Shown: piece by piece, positions 22,496-27,375 of the stretch
How the letters are laid out: each line of letters begins with the position of its first letter
Position numbering within the stretch: position 1 is the stretch's first letter
Origin: Terriglobales bacterium
GTDB lineage: Bacteria; Acidobacteriota; Terriglobia; Terriglobales; Acidobacteriaceae
Direction: 5' to 3'
Assembly (NCBI GenBank): GCA_025934735.1
Contig: JAICWP010000011.1
Location: 62,001-126,000 of the forward strand
DNA length: 64,000 nucleotides
Notes under the pieces: generated by a model
Databases searched by the model: none
Told to the model about the DNA's origin: nothing
Seen by the model: only the letters and a program-made list of their open reading frames with translations
Position numbers and translations under genes: made by a program

Positions 22496-22535
22496 ATCCC
22501 GTTGAAAAACAAGGGTTACCTACACAATTATCTAG

Positions 22536-22564
22536 TTGACACAGATGGCTCTTTTTGCTACTCT
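22536..22564 (+). promoter_or_regulatory. Promoter of the IS1595-type transposase
   Basis: TTGACA at 22536-22541, a 17-bp spacer, then TACTCT at 22559-22564 with an extended TG at 22556-22557. A GGAGGT ribosome-binding site follows at 22577-22582. This makes the in-frame TTG at 22536 a promoter box, not a start codon. Confidence 0.6.
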
Positions 22565-22589
22565 GACCCTGTACTTGGAGGTTGGAACC

Positions 22590-23558
22590 GTGAACCTCAT
22601 ACAGGTAGCCAAAGAGCTGGGAACCGACGAGCAGTGCCTGGATTACCTCGAAAAGCAGCGTTGGCCGGAAGGCGTCCGCTGCGCCCTCTGTGGTAGCGCC
22701 AACATCTCCCGCATCACCCGCAAAACCGAGAGCAAGAACAAGCGCAACCGCATTTACCAGTGCTTAGAGGAAAGCTGCGGCCAGCAGTTCTCGGCTACCG
22801 CTGGCACCATCTTCCATGATTCTCACCTGCCGCTTACGAAGTGGTTCATGGCCCTGGCGCTGATTACCAATGCCAAAAAGGGCATCTCTGCAAAGCAGGT
22901 GCAACGCGACCTGAAAGTCGGCTATCAAACGGCATGGTATCTCTGCCATCGCATCCGCAAGGCGATGGAAGAAAAGGACGGTGGGCTTTTAACAGGCACC
23001 GTCGAAATTGATGAGACATACGTGGGCGGGAAGGCCCGCCGCAAACAGATTCGCAAAGAGGGCAAGTATAAGGTCAAGGATTGCGTGGTCGGCATGGTGG
23101 AGCGCGGCGGCAAACTCCGGCTCCGCCATCTGGGCAAGGGCTCTGCTACCTCTGAGGCTGTCGGCGCAATCATCGAAGCGAATGTTTCCTCCGATGTGGA
23201 GCGGGTCATCACGGACGAGTCCGTCATTTATCCATTTGGCCTTCCAAAAGAGTTTCTACCCAAGCACGAAACCATCATGCACGCCCGCGAATACGTGCGC
23301 GGCGATGTTTATACGAACACGATTGAGAGCGCATTTTCGTTGTTAAAGCGCGGAATCGTGGGCCAGTTCCACAAGGTTTCCATACGCCATCTCCCGCGCT
23401 ATCTGGCGGAATTTGAATACCGCTTCAACCGCAGAGATGAGCAAGAGAACATGTTTGGCGAGACCGTCCGCCGCATGGTCAAGACTGACAAGATGCCCTT
23501 CCGTCAGCTTGTTCTGGAAGCAAAGCGCGGACGGCCAAATTACGAAGCGCAGAAATAA
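22590..23558 (+). mobile_element. IS1595 family transposase
   Basis: A 322-residue transposase. The N-terminal zinc-ribbon has CALCGSANI and a second Cys pair (YQCLEESCGQQFS). The catalytic domain shows EIDETYVGGKARRK, VITDESVIY and NTIESAFSLLKRG, as in the IS1595 DDE/N family (ISXO2-like domain). GTG 22590 is selected because GGAGGT lies 7 bp upstream. The frame is intact and ends in a terminator hairpin at 23563-23582. Terminal inverted repeats and a target duplication could not be identified, so the element's limits are open. Confidence 0.88.
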
Positions 23559-23562
23559 TAAA

Positions 23563-23590
23563 AGCCCGCCTGCCAGCGGGCTGTTGTTCT
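23563..23590 (+). terminator. Terminator after the transposase gene
   Basis: AGCCCGC (23563-23569) pairs with GCGGGCT (23576-23582), followed by GTTGTTCT. It starts 4 bp after the transposase stop. Confidence 0.65.
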
Positions 23591-23633
23591 AAAATATCTT
23601 TTGACAATCTCAGAGTAATGCGCGGGGTTGTCC

Positions 23634-24011
23634 ATGTCAATCGGGAGTTATTTTGTGAGTGATGAAGCTTCGAATACCGCTACCAACAGCCTTATTGAAA
23701 AATTCAAATCGGCGAACGAGGCGAAAACTGTTCTCGAAAACGAGATGAACAGCCTCAGTGAGAAGTTGAATGGTCTCGCAGATGTTCTAAAAAATCCCGA
23801 TGCATACAGATTCTTGCCTAGTCAATCTGATCTGAGTGTAGCTCCCGCAAGGGAGGAATATCCTTCCCAACGTCTGGTTTTGAGATTGCAGTCAAAAGAA
23901 TTTAATTTTGAACATTTGGTTCAAATGCTGACGAGTTACGACAAAGCACGTAGTGACAAAAGGGATAGTGTTGGACGCTTGCGAAACATGGGTCTTCCCA
24001 TTGCGGACTGA
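23634..24011 (+). CDS. Hypothetical helical protein in the accessory island
   Basis: A 125-residue protein of lower GC than its surroundings. Residues 15-50 are strongly helical and probably coiled-coil (IEKFKSANEAKTVLENEMN). No signal peptide or motif is recognised. ATG 23634 is chosen; an in-frame TTG two codons upstream is less likely. Its TGA stop overlaps the ATG of the next small gene by 1 bp, which suggests translational coupling. A TTGACA at 23601-23606 has no good partner -10 box. Confidence 0.55.
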   Translation: MSIGSYFVSDEASNTATNSLIEKFKSANEAKTVLENEMNSLSEKLNGLADVLKNPDAYRFLPSQSDLSVAPAREEYPSQRLVLRLQSKEFNFEHLVQMLTSYDKARSDKRDSVGRLRNMGLPIAD

Positions 24012-24217
24012 TGTTCTATAATTCGCCAGTTCCCCTGCAGCGCTCACGCTCCCATGCTCCTGCCCTCCGCGCGGGTGGCGGCCTCACTAGCGACAATCAT
24101 CATAAGCTGGAGGAGCTTTTCCGGCATCATCTGAAGGAAAAGCATCCTCGCACCGAGGATTTCAGCCAAGCTGCCGCCAGGATCGTGAGAGAGTCTACTC
24201 AAGACCAAGACCACTAA
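24011..24217 (+). CDS. Hypothetical small protein, coupled to the upstream gene
   Basis: A 68-residue ORF. The first 25 residues are low-complexity and may not be translated. The second half (KLEELFRHHLKEKHPRTEDF, then SQAAARIVRE) is amphipathic and looks like a genuine small protein. It starts within the upstream stop codon (TGATG) and its 3' end overlaps the convergent ATPase gene by 23 bp. Function unknown. Confidence 0.4.
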   Translation: MFYNSPVPLQRSRSHAPALRAGGGLTSDNHHKLEELFRHHLKEKHPRTEDFSQAAARIVRESTQDQDH

Positions 24218-25451
24218 ACAATGGAGAAACAGAATTGCGGGCGGCCTGCCGCATGATGAATTCGGCTAGTAGCGGAACAGCGAATGAGTATTTGCCATGA
24301 CGGTTTCTATATACAAGGCCGGCTTCAGCGAGCGAGCCAAGCATTTGATTAACGTGGCTGTTGTTAAACGGTTTAGGTAAGCTCTTGTTGCCTTCGCTAG
24401 CAATTACCTCTTGGACTGTAAACTCCTCTTCGCAGTTTGGTAGCAGTGAGATGACCCAGAGAAGTTGACGTTGCCGGTCTGTTGCCTTCGCCCATCGGCC
24501 AGCGAAAAAATCCGTATCTAACTTAAGTGTAATTTCGTCAACTGGGACTGAGGGCGGCGGCTGGCCGGAATTTAAGGCTTGCACCCAAATATCGAATATT
24601 TCTCGACATACATACTGAATGAAGTATGGATACCCCTTGGTTTGTTGCCAAACGGTGGTCAACGATTCGTCGTTAAATCCAATCGGGCAGTCCTTTGCTG
24701 CCTTTATGGGATTCCTAACAGCCTCTCGTGTGGCTTGCTGATCCAGCGGTTTGAGGAAGATCACATGAAACATTCGCTCCGAATAGGTGCGTGCCTCCAC
24801 TAGTTTTGGGAATAATGTGGGGAGACCAGTGAGCGCTAGCATAAAGCATATGCCCTTTCGTTGCACTGATTGGAAAACGTCAAGGAGCAATGACAGCGGA
24901 AATTGCTCCTTGACGCTATGGTCGGCGAGATTTTGGGCCTCATCATAAGCGAACACAATCCCATGCTTGCCTCCCATCTTGATGTAAGGCCAAACAAACT
25001 CCAGCACTCCTTTAAGTTTGTCCGCTACTAGTCCTGGAGTGCTCTCGTAGATCGCCACCAGCGTCTGAAAATTGAGGGAGGTCGGTACGGTTACGGGCTG
25101 CTGGCCGAAGCCCGCGCCTTGGCGCTCCGACACGGAAACAACGATTGAGCTAGTTACCACGGAAAGATCGGTAAGGAGTCTGATTGCTAAATTCGATTCA
25201 CTTATGCTGGTCGACTCCGACATGTCGGTTCCTGCCCAAAGCCATCCCATCTGAATGGCCATCGGTCTAAATGTTTCAAGCAGCACCGTTTTGCCAATTC
25301 CCCGCAGTCCGGTTAAAACCAAATTCTTGAGCACAATATCTTGCTCCAGCAACCGACTGAACTCATCCTGCTCATTTTTCCGACCAGCCAGGAAGGGTGG
25401 CATATGCCCGGCTCCCGGCCTAAAAGGGTTTGCTGCAGAGTTGATTGGCAT
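24195..25451 (-). CDS. AAA+ ATPase (Orc1/Cdc6-like fold, C-terminal winged helix)
   Basis: A 418-residue ATPase. Walker A is LTGLRGIGKTVLLE (about residues 45-60), Walker B GIVFAYDEAQNLAD, sensor 1 FMLALTGLPTLF, and a C-terminal winged-helix-like domain (VNQMLGSLAEAGLVYRNRHG) follows. ATPases of this type occur in mobile elements and defence islands; the partner and trigger are unknown. The frame opens 18 codons earlier at a TTG (25505), but that TTG is the -35 box of the gene's own promoter. ATG 25451 has GGAGG about 11 bp upstream, so it is preferred. Divergent from the IS1-type remnant at 25571. Confidence 0.78.
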   Translation of the reverse strand: MPINSAANPFRPGAGHMPPFLAGRKNEQDEFSRLLEQDIVLKNLVLTGLRGIGKTVLLETFRPMAIQMGWLWAGTDMSESTSISESNLAIRLLTDLSVVTSSIVVSVSERQGAGFGQQPVTVPTSLNFQTLVAIYESTPGLVADKLKGVLEFVWPYIKMGGKHGIVFAYDEAQNLADHSVKEQFPLSLLLDVFQSVQRKGICFMLALTGLPTLFPKLVEARTYSERMFHVIFLKPLDQQATREAVRNPIKAAKDCPIGFNDESLTTVWQQTKGYPYFIQYVCREIFDIWVQALNSGQPPPSVPVDEITLKLDTDFFAGRWAKATDRQRQLLWVISLLPNCEEEFTVQEVIASEGNKSLPKPFNNSHVNQMLGSLAEAGLVYRNRHGKYSFAVPLLAEFIMRQAARNSVSPLFSGLGLE

Positions 25452-25476
25452 CTTGGGCCTTCCCTCCACAGCAGGA

Positions 25477-25505
25477 AAGGTATCAAGTGTCAGTTCGTTT
25501 GTCAA
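25477..25505 (-). promoter_or_regulatory. Promoter of the AAA+ ATPase gene
   Basis: On the minus strand TTGACA (25505-25500) is followed after 17 bp by TACCTT (25482-25477). This -35/-10 pair is the same as that of the divergent promoter at 25535-25563. Confidence 0.55.
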
Positions 25506-25539
25506 CTAAATTTAGACTTTAGTATAAATTTAGCTTGAC
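25501..25539. promoter_or_regulatory. Near-palindromic control region between divergent promoters
   Basis: GTCAACTAAATTTA (25501-25514) is repeated in inverted form as TAAATTTAGCTTGAC (25525-25539), with one inserted base. The arms carry the two outward-facing TTGACA boxes, so a protein bound here would control both directions. Confidence 0.55.
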
Positions 25540-25563
25540 AACTAACTTGCTCTGGTCTACCTT
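25535..25563 (+). promoter_or_regulatory. Promoter of the IS1-type transposase remnant
   Basis: TTGACA at 25535-25540, a 17-bp spacer, TACCTT at 25558-25563. The ATG of the remnant follows at 25571, so the transcript would be nearly leaderless. Confidence 0.5.
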
Positions 25564-25570
25564 GCTGTTG

Positions 25571-25803
25571 ATGAATCGCCTCACTACCGAGAAGCGCGTC
25601 GCGGTGATCGCCGCTTTGGTGGAAGGAACCTCCATTAATGCCACCTGCCGCATGACCTGGGTTGCCAAGCACACCCTCCTGAAGCTGCTCAAGGATATGG
25701 GTTGTGCCTGCGCTGCCTTGCCTACCACGTTTGGAGTTTGGAGGAATTGGTGGGATTATTGGCGAATACAGAAAAAGAACAGGCCACCCAAGGGGCGGCC
25801 TAG
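25571..25803 (+). pseudogene. Internally deleted IS1-type transposase remnant
   Basis: The first about 48 codons (MNRLTTEKRVAVIAALVEGT onward to DMGCACAA) match the N-terminal helix-turn-helix of IS1-like transposases. Near 25720 the homology jumps. In another frame, 25723-25803 reads YHVWSLEELVGLL followed by a short tail and TAG, which resembles the C-terminal end of the same family. The catalytic middle is missing. This is an inference from remembered family sequence and needs an alignment. Confidence 0.55.
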
Positions 25804-25874
25804 ATCATTACCCCGGGCACATACCTTTCGGTAGAGGGGTCACCGGGGTGTACTTAAGCTAGGATGCGCTTAAC

Positions 25875-26579
25875 ATGGACCAAAATCAACAACTTTTTGT
25901 CTATTCAAATGAACAACTTGACGGCCTGATACTCACCTTGTCACTAGATAGGCTGACCCCGTACCTCAAGGCTGCCGGGGGCGATCGGCACCATGCGATC
26001 CGACTGTACGAGTGGAATACTGCCATGTCAGAGGCGTTCTATGGCATTCTCCAGGGCCTAGAGATAGCTCTCCGTAACTCATTTGACCGCACAATGGCGG
26101 TGGCCTTCGGTCGCCCTGGCTGGTACGACACCCCGGGACTTCTCCAGCATGAACAACAAGAAGCAGTACGCAAGGCGAAAGTGCGACTCGTGCAGGACGG
26201 GAAGGTAGTCGTGCCATGCAAAGTGGTAGCTGAATTGACGTTTGGATTCTGGGTTGCCCTCACCGGTCCTGCCTACGCGCAGCGCCTCTGGGACAAACAT
26301 CTGCACAAGGCATTCGCCATCAGTCTTGGGAGAAAAGCCGTGAATCGCCGAATGGAAAAGATTCGCAAGCTCCGCAATCGGGTCGCGCACCATGAATCCA
26401 TCTTAGCTCGTAATCTCCACTCCGATTACGCGCGCATCATCGAGTCAATTCATTGGATTTGTCCTGTTACGGCACTCTGGATCAAATCACACAGTTGCTT
26501 CCATGAGCGGTTCCGCGAGAGGCCGCACCCACCAGCTCAGCAATCTCTGGAGCTTGCCGCCCCTATTCCCAAATCTTAA
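25875..26579 (+). CDS. Abi-like HEPN-domain protein (Abi_2 / AbiD-AbiF type)
   Basis: A 234-residue protein of the Abi-like family. The core shows helical repeats typical of Abi_2 (AMSEAFYGILQGLEIALRNSF, VAELTFGFWVALTG) and the HEPN ribonuclease motif in KIRKLRNRVAHHESI (R-N-x3-H). Known members cause abortive infection, probably through RNA cleavage. The substrate here is unknown. A tRNA-like gene and two RNA hairpins lie within 500 bp downstream, and such RNAs could be substrate, antitoxin or bystander. The ribosome-binding site is weak (AGGATG about 10 bp upstream). No antitoxin protein is obvious apart from the small ORF at 26652. Confidence 0.78.
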   Translation: MDQNQQLFVYSNEQLDGLILTLSLDRLTPYLKAAGGDRHHAIRLYEWNTAMSEAFYGILQGLEIALRNSFDRTMAVAFGRPGWYDTPGLLQHEQQEAVRKAKVRLVQDGKVVVPCKVVAELTFGFWVALTGPAYAQRLWDKHLHKAFAISLGRKAVNRRMEKIRKLRNRVAHHESILARNLHSDYARIIESIHWICPVTALWIKSHSCFHERFRERPHPPAQQSLELAAPIPKS

Positions 26580-26651
26580 ATTCAAACTGCACCACTACCA
26601 GCGCCGTAGCGCATCAACGCAGCTTTAGTAGGCCCGCGCGGTCAATTAGGT

Positions 26652-26810
26652 CTATCTTGGCTGGATTATCTTCGCTGGCTTCCGCTTGGCTGGCTTGACC
26701 TGGGACTGCTTCAATGGGCGGGCATGGATGAGCTTCTGCAGGTTCCGGTTGAAGTCTTCCCGGTTGACCGTCAATTCCTGAGTTTTCTCCGCTGCTGCTT
26801 TTTTAGCCAC
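26652..26810 (-). CDS. Small basic protein, 52 residues
   Basis: An ORF on the minus strand with GTG start at 26810: MAKKAAAEKTQELTVNREDF at the N-terminus and a Lys/Arg/Pro-rich tail (VKPAKRKPAK). Composition is protein-like and the frame is open over its whole length. It starts 10 bp from the left 18-bp inverted repeat (26821-26838). A possible -10 GATACT sits in that repeat, but no clear Shine-Dalgarno is visible. It could bind nucleic acid; function unknown and existence not proven. Confidence 0.4.
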   Translation of the reverse strand: MAKKAAAEKTQELTVNREDFNRNLQKLIHARPLKQSQVKPAKRKPAKIIQPR

Positions 26811-26820
26811 GTTGGGTGTA

Positions 26821-26838
26821 GTCAAGTATCCTCTTGAC
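26821..26838 (+). repeat. Left 18-bp inverted repeat of the tRNA-like cassette
   Basis: GTCAAGTATCCTCTTGAC matches the reverse complement of 27323-27340 at 17 of 18 positions. It is itself a palindrome, GTCAAG-N6-CTTGAC, so it may be a terminal repeat, an operator, or both. TATATT at 26843-26848 could be a -10 box for the RNA that follows. Confidence 0.7.
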
Positions 26839-26860
26839 GGCTATATTAACAAAAGCAAAA

Positions 26861-26940
26861 GGCTCTGAGGTGTCCAAGACCCCAGAGCCCTAGCCTCCAT
26901 CAGATTGTGGCGTCCAAGACCACGATCTGATGCCCTTTTT
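26861..26940 (+). ncRNA. Twin stem-loop RNA with identical loops and terminator
   Basis: Stem 1: GGCTCTGAGG (26861-26870) pairs with CCCCAGAGCC (26880-26889) with one mismatch. Stem 2: CATCAGATTGTGG (26898-26910) pairs with CCACGATCTGATG (26920-26932) with one G-T wobble, followed by TTTTT at 26936-26940. Both stems carry a 9-nt loop with the same octamer GTCCAAGA. Stem 2 plus the T run is a Rho-independent terminator. The stems differ in sequence but the loops are conserved, which points to a functional RNA. No family is recognised. Confidence 0.6.
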
Positions 26941-26945
26941 ATTGT

Positions 26946-27039
26946 GCGGAGGATGCGGGTCTGGTGACCCTAAGCGGACTTATAGCCGCGACAAAATCCC
27001 TAGCCGGATTGCGGTTCGATTCCGCCATCCTCCGCTCCA
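26946..27039 (+). tRNA. Non-canonical class II tRNA-like gene (allo-tRNA / tRNA-Sec-like)
   Basis: A full cloverleaf can be drawn. Acceptor: 9 bp (26946-26954 with 27027-27035), then T and an encoded CCA (27037-27039). D arm: GGGTC-TGGT-GACCC (26957-26970), a 5-bp stem with a 4-nt loop as in tRNA-Sec. Anticodon arm: GCGG/CCGC (26974-26977 with 26986-26989) enclosing an 8-nt loop ACTTATAG. Variable arm: ATCC/GGAT (26996-26999 with 27006-27009). T arm: GCGG-TTCGATT-CCGC (27011-27025), only 4 bp, with C27026 unpaired or pairing with G26955. The B box GGTTCGATTCC is canonical. If T26980 is U33 the anticodon is TAT (AUA codons); an alternative TTA would read UAA. It is not a standard selC (no TCA anticodon). 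It resembles the 8/4 and 9/3 tRNAs described from Acidobacteria. Confidence 0.72.
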
Positions 27040-27146
27040 ATGTAAAGAACCTGTTATTTTGCCTGCTATATTTTCCCAGGCAGTGCCAGTATTGACCACT
27101 ACTGACTAGTAGCTACCAAGTAGCGTACACAGACATGTCTGCGAAG

Positions 27147-27228
27147 GTCAACTTTTTCCGTGTCAGTTTTCGAGGCCACTTTTTGACCCTTCATTTTTGG
27201 GCGTCAGTTTCTGTGTCACTTTTTCGCC
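27147..27228. repeat. Tandem degenerate (K)GTCA-C/G-TTTTT repeats
   Basis: Four to five copies of a 13-15 bp unit: GGTCAACTTTTTCCG, TGTCAGTTTTCG, GGCCACTTTTTG, GCGTCAGTTTCTG, TGTCACTTTTTCG. They may be the end of a lost insertion sequence (IS21-type ends have multiple repeats of this sort). A perfect 12-bp palindrome CAGACATGTCTG lies just upstream at 27130-27141. Confidence 0.4.
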
Positions 27229-27322
27229 TTATCCTGCCGCTTACAAAATGTGGGGTTCCTGACGCCATTTCCACAGATTACTAAAGGGCTATTCCGACCC
27301 TCAATCTCATAAAAGTATATGT

Positions 27323-27340
27323 GTCAAGAGGATACTTGTC
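27323..27340 (-). repeat. Right 18-bp inverted repeat of the tRNA-like cassette
   Basis: GTCAAGAGGATACTTGTC, the inverted partner of 26821-26838 (17/18 match). It lies 89 bp upstream of the rpoN start. GATACT inside it could act as an outward -10 box toward rpoN. Confidence 0.7.
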
Positions 27341-27375
27341 TTACCTACGTCACGCATTTTAATTGCCAACCTCTT

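What the first reader, a model, noticed from the sequence alone, without database searches (positions are those of the whole stretch)
26946..27039. A non-canonical class II tRNA gene (9-bp acceptor, 4-bp T stem, 8-nt anticodon loop) in an accessory island
Seen: all arms of a cloverleaf can be paired, with a 9-bp acceptor, Sec-like D arm (5-bp stem, 4-nt loop), variable arm, 4-bp T stem with canonical TTCGATT loop, an encoded CCA and a perfect B box. Two features are odd: an 8-nt anticodon loop closed by 4 bp, and C27026 left unpaired between the T stem and acceptor. Known: tRNAs with 8/4 and 9/3 acceptor/T arms ('allo-tRNAs') were reported from Acidobacteria, some proposed as missense or nonsense suppressors or regulatory RNAs. 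Inference: a member of that group, with possible anticodon TAT (AUA), or TTA (UAA) in another register. Standard tRNA searches would probably miss it.
Basis: partly seen in the sequence, partly recalled or inferred. Interest (0 to 1): 0.9.

Follow-up and report, generated by a model that had tools for sequence, protein, structure and literature searches.

The report
Transposon tRNA matched to transposase codons
A strange tRNA gene in a soil bacterium is cargo of a jumping gene, and across related jumping genes its anticodon matches rare codons kept at fixed places in the jumping gene's own enzyme, which suggests the element carries its own way of reading those codons.

Summary
The RNA is real. 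Window 26946-27039 is an 8/4 allo-tRNA (8-bp acceptor, 4-bp T stem; C27026 pairs with G26955), anticodon UAU, Ser-like class II body with G73; covariation is strong. The "island" is a 4.8-kb IS1595-family transposon (22524-27340) with inverted ends and an 8-bp target duplication. Of 32 such loci, 15 lie between IS1595 ends, 13 with a target duplication. New result: transposases of these elements keep AUA at up to three fixed codons. At position 272 (L099 numbering) AUA stands in 24 of 29 elements with a UAU tRNA and 0 of 42 without a tRNA; elements with a UAA tRNA have UUA there, 3 of 3. Codons printed before the tRNA search agreed with it in 4 of 4 further genomes. The coupling of tRNA and transposase codons is shown by comparison. 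That the tRNA inserts serine is inferred from its body: scattered AUA codons and position 272 do not look like Ile sites, but positions 4 and 264 do, and no profile singles out Ser. Ser reassignment or rare-codon control must be decided by experiment.

The parts
22516..22523 (.). left target-site duplication TTACCTAC
   Evidence: identical to 27341-27348
22524..22546 (+). left inverted repeat of the IS1595-type element (core AATTATCTAGTTGACACAGA)
22590..23558 (+). IS1595-family (ISXO2-like) transposase, 322 aa from GTG
   Evidence: Pfam PF12762 4.2e-29 and PF12760 2.1e-10; start as in homologues
22599..22601 (+). AUA codon 4 of the transposase (conserved position 4)
23382..23384 (+). AUA codon 265 of the transposase (= conserved position 272 of L099 numbering)
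23628..24011 (+). cargo ORF, 127 aa, no Pfam match
24195..25505 (-). cargo gene, AAA ATPase (below curated cut-off)
25775..25870 (+). hairpin-rich stretch upstream of the Abi_2 gene, similar to the one upstream of homologue L034 (possible AbiF-type ncRNA)
   Evidence: by eye
25875..26579 (+). cargo gene, Abi_2 / HEPN protein, 234 aa
   Evidence: PF07751 1.8e-7, above cut-off
26861..26889 (+). hairpin 1 upstream of the tRNA, apex GTCCAAGAC
26898..26932 (+). hairpin 2, same apex, followed by a T run (terminator-like)
26946..27039 (+). 8/4 allo-tRNA gene, anticodon UAU; acceptor 26948-26955/27026-27033, G73 27034, D arm 26957-26970, anticodon arm 26974-26989, T arm 27011-27025
26981..26983 (+). 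anticodon TAT (UAU)
27318..27340 (-). right inverted repeat (core AAGTATCCTCTTGACACATA)
27341..27348 (.). right target-site duplication TTACCTAC

Best explanation
The feature is an 8/4 allo-tRNA(UAU) gene carried as cargo by an IS1595-family transposon. The tRNA is functionally coupled to its own transposon: it decodes AUA codons kept at fixed positions of the transposase gene (sister elements use a UAA tRNA and UUA codons). Because the tRNA has a Ser-type class II body with G73, it most likely inserts serine there, so that correct transposase is made only in a cell that holds the element's own tRNA: a small private code that ties transposition to the tRNA, which lies on the far side of the transposase gene together with the other cargo. 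Shown: the tRNA family, the transposon boundaries, the codon/anticodon association. Inferred: serine, the need for the tRNA, and that this helps to keep the cargo.
For: Homology and covariation. Transposon ends and TSD; control 0 IR hits in 30 tRNA-Sec loci against 15 of 32 allo loci with the same flanks (the repeat model was trained on some of these loci). AUA/Ile in transposases 59/300 against host 179/2772, while AGA/Arg is not raised (0.016 against 0.047). Position 272: AUA in 24 of 29 UAU-tRNA elements, 0 of 42 without a tRNA; UUA in 3 of 3 UAA-tRNA elements; no Ile by AUU/AUC and no Leu by another codon there in any of the 88 tabulated transposases; Fisher p = 2.2e-14, and 15/19 against 0/35, p = 4.5e-10, at 70% non-redundancy. 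Tree: about five separate tRNA-less lineages inside the clade, none with AUA at 272; the change between UAU and UAA goes with a change between AUA and UUA at two positions. Further genomes: codons printed, tRNAs then found or not found as expected in 4 of 4. Meaning of AUA in UAU elements: Ile below background over all cells (-24 to -39) and outside the three hot columns (-26 to -41), while AUU/AUC in the same genes score strongly Ile; at position 272 tRNA-less relatives have Ala 21, Thr 5, Val 5, Pro 4 of 42 and no Ile or Leu. Serine: class II body and G73 in 29 of 32, and established knowledge that SerRS does not read the anticodon while LeuRS wants A73.
Against: Serine is not singled out. 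In the second alignment Ser scores below Ile over all AUA cells (-55 to -61 against -24 to -39); V is best there, K and H in the first alignment; outside the hot columns Arg or Ser lead. Positions 4 and 264 fit Ile better than Ser (log-odds +0.50 against -0.72; +1.41 against -1.71), and no tRNA-less relative has Ser at 272. UAU elements without AUA at 272 have Val 3 or Gly 2. Five UAU elements (L095, L189, L227, L229, L268) lack AUA at 272, and four of 43 tRNA-less elements keep one AUA at 4 or 264. The cargo AUA codons looked at mostly align with Ile/Val. The review says that allo-tRNA(UAU) molecules did not work in E. coli translation (PMC7609411). 11 of 32 tRNA loci showed no IS1595 ends or transposase (several at contig ends). 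No transcript, charging or proteome data.
Confidence: 0.62

Rival explanations
1. Rare-codon control: the tRNA only changes the rate of reading AUA (or UUA) at checkpoint codons of the transposase; the residue is Ile or Leu, or does not matter.
For: AUA and UUA are rare in the hosts; codon 4 is a classic place for translational control; relatives have V, L, I at position 4 and V, I at 264; AUA to UUA would be Ile to Leu, a mild change; AUA in cargo mostly aligns with Ile/Val.
Against: Position 272 never has Ile by AUU/AUC or Leu by another codon; Ile scores below background at AUA sites outside the hot columns; class II bodies with G73 are not Ile or Leu tRNAs.
Confidence: 0.26
2. Non-translational RNA: antitoxin or guide for cargo such as the Abi_2/HEPN protein, or a transposition-related RNA.
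For: The review mentions transposon or toxin-antitoxin links as a guess; an Abi_2 gene lies 367 bp upstream.
Against: The seven other Abi_2 loci have no allo-tRNA-like RNA beside them, and several seem by eye to have their own upstream RNA; the protein cargo differs between elements while the tRNA stays; it would not explain the match of anticodon and codon.
Confidence: 0.05
3. Shared ancestry alone: one transposase clade happens to have AUA codons and a tRNA.
For: All UAU and UAA tRNA carriers fall in one clade.
Against: Several tRNA-less lineages inside the clade lack AUA at 272, an anticodon change comes with a codon change, different tRNA bodies have the same anticodon, and synonymous Ile codons are absent at 272.
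Confidence: 0.04

Closest known systems
Allo-tRNAs (8/4 and 9/3), UAU group (Mukai et al. 2017, reviewed in PMC7609411)
   Same: 8/4 branch, class II body, Ser-type features, UAU the commonest anticodon, Acidobacteria, suspected link to transposons
   Different: Here the mobile element is identified by its ends and target duplications, and the anticodon matches conserved codons of its transposase
IS1595-family transposons with passenger genes
   Same: transposase domain, inverted ends, 8-bp target duplication, passenger genes (family traits recalled)
   Different: a tRNA gene as recurrent cargo with a matching codon set in the transposase; I know of no such report
Phage suppressor-tRNA recoding (TAG reassigned in crAss-like phages; listings)
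   Same: a mobile element carries the tRNA that reads its own unusual codons
   Different: sense codons AUA/UUA at two or three sites of one gene, in a transposon, residue probably Ser
Selenocysteine tRNA (Rfam RF01852)
   Same: short D loop, long acceptor, class II
   Different: anticodon UAU not UCA; 12-bp branch not 13; the host has a separate tRNA-Sec (G000:C8:60465)

Membership tests
allo-tRNA (8/4) | 8-bp acceptor plus 4-bp T stem | tested here: met
   32 of 32 loci, window included, best register taken
allo-tRNA (8/4) | long variable arm and Ser-type identity (G73, GGA start) | tested here: met
   G73 in 29 of 32; window GGA, G73
allo-tRNA (8/4) | anticodon not of the body's amino acid | tested here: met
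   UAU in the window; TTATA in 26 of 32 anticodon regions, UAU by eye in two more
allo-tRNA (8/4) | charged with Ser and active in translation | not testable with these tools
   needs biochemistry; the UAU group was inactive in E. coli according to PMC7609411
IS1595-family transposon | DDE_Tnp_IS1595 transposase with zinc ribbon | tested here: met
   PF12762 and PF12760 above cut-off
IS1595-family transposon | terminal inverted repeats and 8-bp target duplication | tested here: met
tRNA-Sec | UCA anticodon and Rfam gathering score | tested here: not met
   34.8 bits against 47; anticodon UAU
AbiF-type toxin with tRNA-like antitoxin | tRNA-like RNA beside Abi_2 homologues | tested here: not met
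   seven other loci: no allo-tRNA-like hit; two have an ordinary tRNA within 1.5 kb (L034, L037)
element-borne codon reassignment | codon used where its standard amino acid is not expected | tested here: inconclusive
   Ile disfavoured at position 272 and at scattered AUA sites, but not at positions 4 and 264; UUA in UAA elements only 10 cells
element-borne codon reassignment | a definite new amino acid | tested here: inconclusive
   no single residue wins; Ser ranks first to third only outside the hot columns

The most novel reading that the evidence does not exclude
IS1595-family transposons use a private genetic code: their own class II Ser-tRNA reads AUA (in one branch UUA) as serine at two or three positions of the transposase, so transposase is active only where the element's tRNA is present; this code lock keeps tRNA and cargo with the transposase and shields the host when the tRNA is lost.
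Probability: 0.45. Interest if true: 0.96.

Novelty: new variant of a known kind. Interest (0 to 1): 0.9.

Why it matters
It would be a natural sense-codon reassignment, or a tRNA-gated codon switch, confined to one gene of a transposon, and it offers a function for the allo-tRNA(UAU) genes, whose purpose is open. It makes the question 'what are allo-tRNAs for?' directly testable with one gene, two codons and one tRNA. It also gives a simple rule (AUA or UUA at position 272 goes with a UAU or UAA tRNA) that agreed with four further genomes.

Tried and rejected
Abi_2/HEPN toxin plus tRNA-like antitoxin: rejected, since the seven other Abi_2 loci have no such RNA (two have ordinary tRNAs nearby). 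A scan of genome contigs with the Abi_2 protein found nothing. Selenocysteine tRNA: rejected. Nested mini-element starting at the partial repeat 26824-26843: seen, not pursued. BLAST-type DNA search for homologues: nearly blind (2 of 100 genomes, one of them the window's own), replaced by a structural pattern and covariance models. Reading AUA in cargo genes as Ser: not supported in the few alignments made, most align with Ile/Val. Extra pattern hits in viral and genome contigs: phage class II UAU tRNAs and chance hits, set aside. Model R1 was built with a structure one column off and never used for a result.

Rows dropped: from the 136 transposase copies, one search used those with E < 1e-60 and left out L281.41, L281.42 and L280.38 (duplicate or fragment), then added four new ones, 88 in all. 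tRNAs were sought from 0.3 kb before to 5.5 kb after the end of the transposase, without regard to the element's right end. Elements with less than 2.5 kb downstream are counted as unknown, not as tRNA-less. In the first codon-meaning test the comparison set of 94 still held L268, later seen to have a UAU tRNA, and elements with other tRNAs. L171 was classed UAU by the covariance model although ARAGORN reads its 7-nt loop as UUA. Eight further UAU elements, the window among them, are seen only by the covariance model; I read their anticodons by eye. L083 and L073, from other phyla, helped to build R3 but are not among the 32.

Full report
1. The RNA. Window 26946-27039 reads GCGGAGGATG C GGGTC TGGT GACCC TAA GCGG ACTTATAG CCGC, then the variable arm, GCGG TTCGATT CCGC CATCCTCC G CTCCA. 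ARAGORN finds no tRNA in the window. Rfam has nothing above threshold and a sub-threshold tRNA-Sec match of 34.8 bits, cut-off 47. The bare RNA folds better than shuffles (z -4.8), but its MFE is not the cloverleaf.

2. Homologues. DNA similarity finds almost nothing (2 of 100 relatives including the own genome). A loose pattern found one clear homologue, in 1 of 299 further genomes, with compensatory changes in acceptor and D stem. A covariance model from the two (R2) hit 10 of 399 class genomes, own included. A 12-sequence model (R3) hit 26 of 300 family genomes, own included. In all, 32 loci. On the 12-sequence alignment 93.5% of cells pair, 20 of 26 pairs have double changes, and no shuffle of 500 reaches the observed values; that alignment was fitted to the structure, and the slid controls fall to about 41-50% paired. 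tRNA-Sec genes score at most 33.7 bits with R2 (12 loci given) and 45.3 with R3 (30 loci), against at least 49.7 and 59.3 for the reported family members. All 32 parse as 8 + 4 in their best register; G73 in 29 of 32. UAU anticodon: TTATA in the anticodon region of 26 of 32 and, by eye, two more (L095, L185). Exceptions are L096, L100, L187 and L190. The window's 4-bp stem with 8-nt loop recurs in L170 and L172.

3. The island is a transposon. An IS1595 (ISXO2-like) transposase lies at 22590-23558. Terminal repeats resembling GATTATCCCCTTGACACAGA lie with cores at 22526-22545 and 27318-27337, and the 8-bp duplication TTACCTAC flanks the element. Of the 32 tRNA loci, 15 are flanked on both sides by such repeats and 13 of these have a duplication of 8 bp or more (L099 has none; L170 could not be judged); 5 more have one end; 11 have neither end nor transposase (several near contig ends); L187 has only a distant transposase. 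The repeat model was trained on some of these loci. As a control, 30 tRNA-Sec loci with the same 1.5-kb flanks gave no hit, against 15 of 32 allo-tRNA loci. The tRNA lies 55 to 2371 bp from the right end in the 15 complete elements, before, between or after other cargo. The protein cargo varies: AAA ATPase-like and Abi_2 (window), Trypsin_2 (L095), HTH with M78 peptidase (L099), HTH and DUF3467 with a weak Gp49 match (L175, and by sequence L170, L172), DUF3800 (L180, and by sequence L188), Beta_protein (L189); one cargo protein (L097) and another (L180, 147 aa) matched nothing. Not all cargo was scanned.

4. The codons. In the 15 complete elements AUA makes up 59 of 300 Ile codons of the transposases but 179 of 2772 in flanking host genes; AGA among Arg codons is lower than in the host (0.016 against 0.047), so low GC alone does not explain it. 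A codon alignment shows AUA at three fixed positions (4, 264, 272 of L099), and in elements whose tRNA has anticodon UAA (L230-L232) UUA stands at positions 4 and 272. These UAA tRNAs, and UAU tRNAs of other class II bodies, were found downstream of related transposases in genomes where R3 had given no strong hit.

5. The association. Transposases from genomes and viral contigs (71 loci) were aligned; 88 are tabulated. At position 272: UAU-tRNA elements AUA 24, other 5; tRNA-less elements, with at least 2.8 kb downstream at hand, AUA 0, other 42, one gap; UAA-tRNA elements UUA 3 of 3; elements with other tRNAs by ARAGORN 0 of 4; contig ends AUA 2, UUA 1, other 5, gap 1. tRNAs were sought with ARAGORN and R3 within 5.5 kb after the transposase. 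Fisher p = 2.2e-14; at 70% non-redundancy 15 of 19 against 0 of 35, p = 4.5e-10. All 29 UAU elements have AUA at one or more of the three positions, against 4 of 43 without a tRNA. Sequences are related, so these p-values are too small. The tree is the better control: within the one clade that holds the UAU and UAA tRNAs (support 0.93), about five separate tRNA-less lineages (L225; L221 with L351; L226; L228; L350) lack AUA at 272, a sixth (L238) is broken before that site, and the change between UAU and UAA goes with a change between AUA and UUA at two positions.

6. Further genomes. For L358, L359, L362 and L363 (and L357, the same element as L351) the codons were printed first: AUA at all three sites in L358 and L359, Ala at 272 in L362 and L363. 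The tRNA search then gave tRNA(UAU) in the first two and none in the last two, also with longer flanks (L365-L368). This is a small test, four genomes. L365 also has a tRNA with anticodon UUA.

7. What residue? With a profile from other transposases, AUU and AUC of the UAU elements score as Ile (+55.8 and +271.2) and AUA of the other elements scores as Ile (+76.2), but AUA of UAU elements scores Ile -28.5, Leu -68.0, Ser -17.5, Lys +7.4, His +6.7. A second alignment (29 UAU and 43 tRNA-less) gives, over all AUA cells, Ile -24 to -39, Leu -73 to -84, Ser -55 to -61, Val +17 to +26; AUA in tRNA-less elements Ile +17 to +18 with Val level; outside the three hot columns Ser -1 to +7, Arg +5 to +13, Ile -33 to -41. 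Position by position against the tRNA-less set: position 4 Ile +0.50, Ser -0.72; position 264 Ile +1.41, Ser -1.71; position 272 Ile -1.39, Leu -1.55, Ser -1.12, Val +0.45, with Ala 21, Thr 5, Val 5, Pro 4 of 42 and no Ser. So position 272 and the scattered AUA codons speak against Ile, positions 4 and 264 do not, and Ser is nowhere clearly best. For Ser speak the tRNA bodies (class II, G73, GGA start; established knowledge: SerRS does not read the anticodon, LeuRS wants A73). In the AlphaFold model of L099 (mean pLDDT 79; the block 261-270 only 55) residue 272 is the first residue of helix 272-288 and residue 4 lies in helix 3-9; a helix start is a usual place for Ser, Pro, Thr or Ala rather than Ile. 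Cargo AUA codons mostly align with Ile/Val in the few alignments made, so the effect, if real, is aimed at the transposase, or AUA is read ambiguously.

8. Literature. The review PMC7609411 (outline with abstract; section 7 read) says UAU is among the predominant 8/4 anticodons and the most abundant group in soil and sediment metagenomes, one gene overlaps a transposon-related ORF, they could not be used for translation in E. coli, and a link to transposons or toxin-antitoxin systems was hypothesised. Mukai et al. 2017 itself is not held; I know it from the review and recall. Nine searches (listings only apart from PMC7609411) showed no paper that ties a transposon tRNA to codons of its transposase. 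The library holds open-licence papers only.

9. Mechanism. Most likely the element's tRNA, charged with serine, reads AUA at two or three sites of the transposase; the main rival is control of translation rate with Ile. Either way loss of the tRNA region would cost the element proper transposase, which would help to keep cargo. That last step is inference; I have no experiment.

Noticed in passing
window 25775-26579: Abi_2/HEPN gene with a hairpin-rich stretch just upstream, similar to that upstream of the homologue in L034; possibly an AbiF-type toxin with its RNA.
   Followed up: partly
window 26861-26932: Two hairpins with the same apex GTCCAAGAC upstream of the tRNA, the second with a T run; paired hairpins also precede the tRNA in L042 and L086 (by eye).
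   Followed up: partly
L365 1365-1450 (-): A second tRNA, anticodon UUA (would read UAA stop), next to the UAU tRNA near an IS1595-type transposase.
   Followed up: no
L237 8339-8414, L240 8025-8110: tRNAs with anticodons ACU and GUC downstream of IS1595-type transposases; the codons at the three positions do not match them.
   Followed up: no
L052, L053, L056, L057, L061: Viral contigs with class II tRNAs carrying UAU-like anticodon loops and very short D loops (by eye).
   Followed up: no
L073 3560-3651, L083 689-781: Allo-tRNA-like genes in a Planctomycetota MAG and a Solirubrobacterales MAG, possibly 9/3.
   Followed up: partly
L034 2189-2360: CRISPR-like repeats (below Rfam's cut-off) directly downstream of an Abi_2 homologue.
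   Followed up: no
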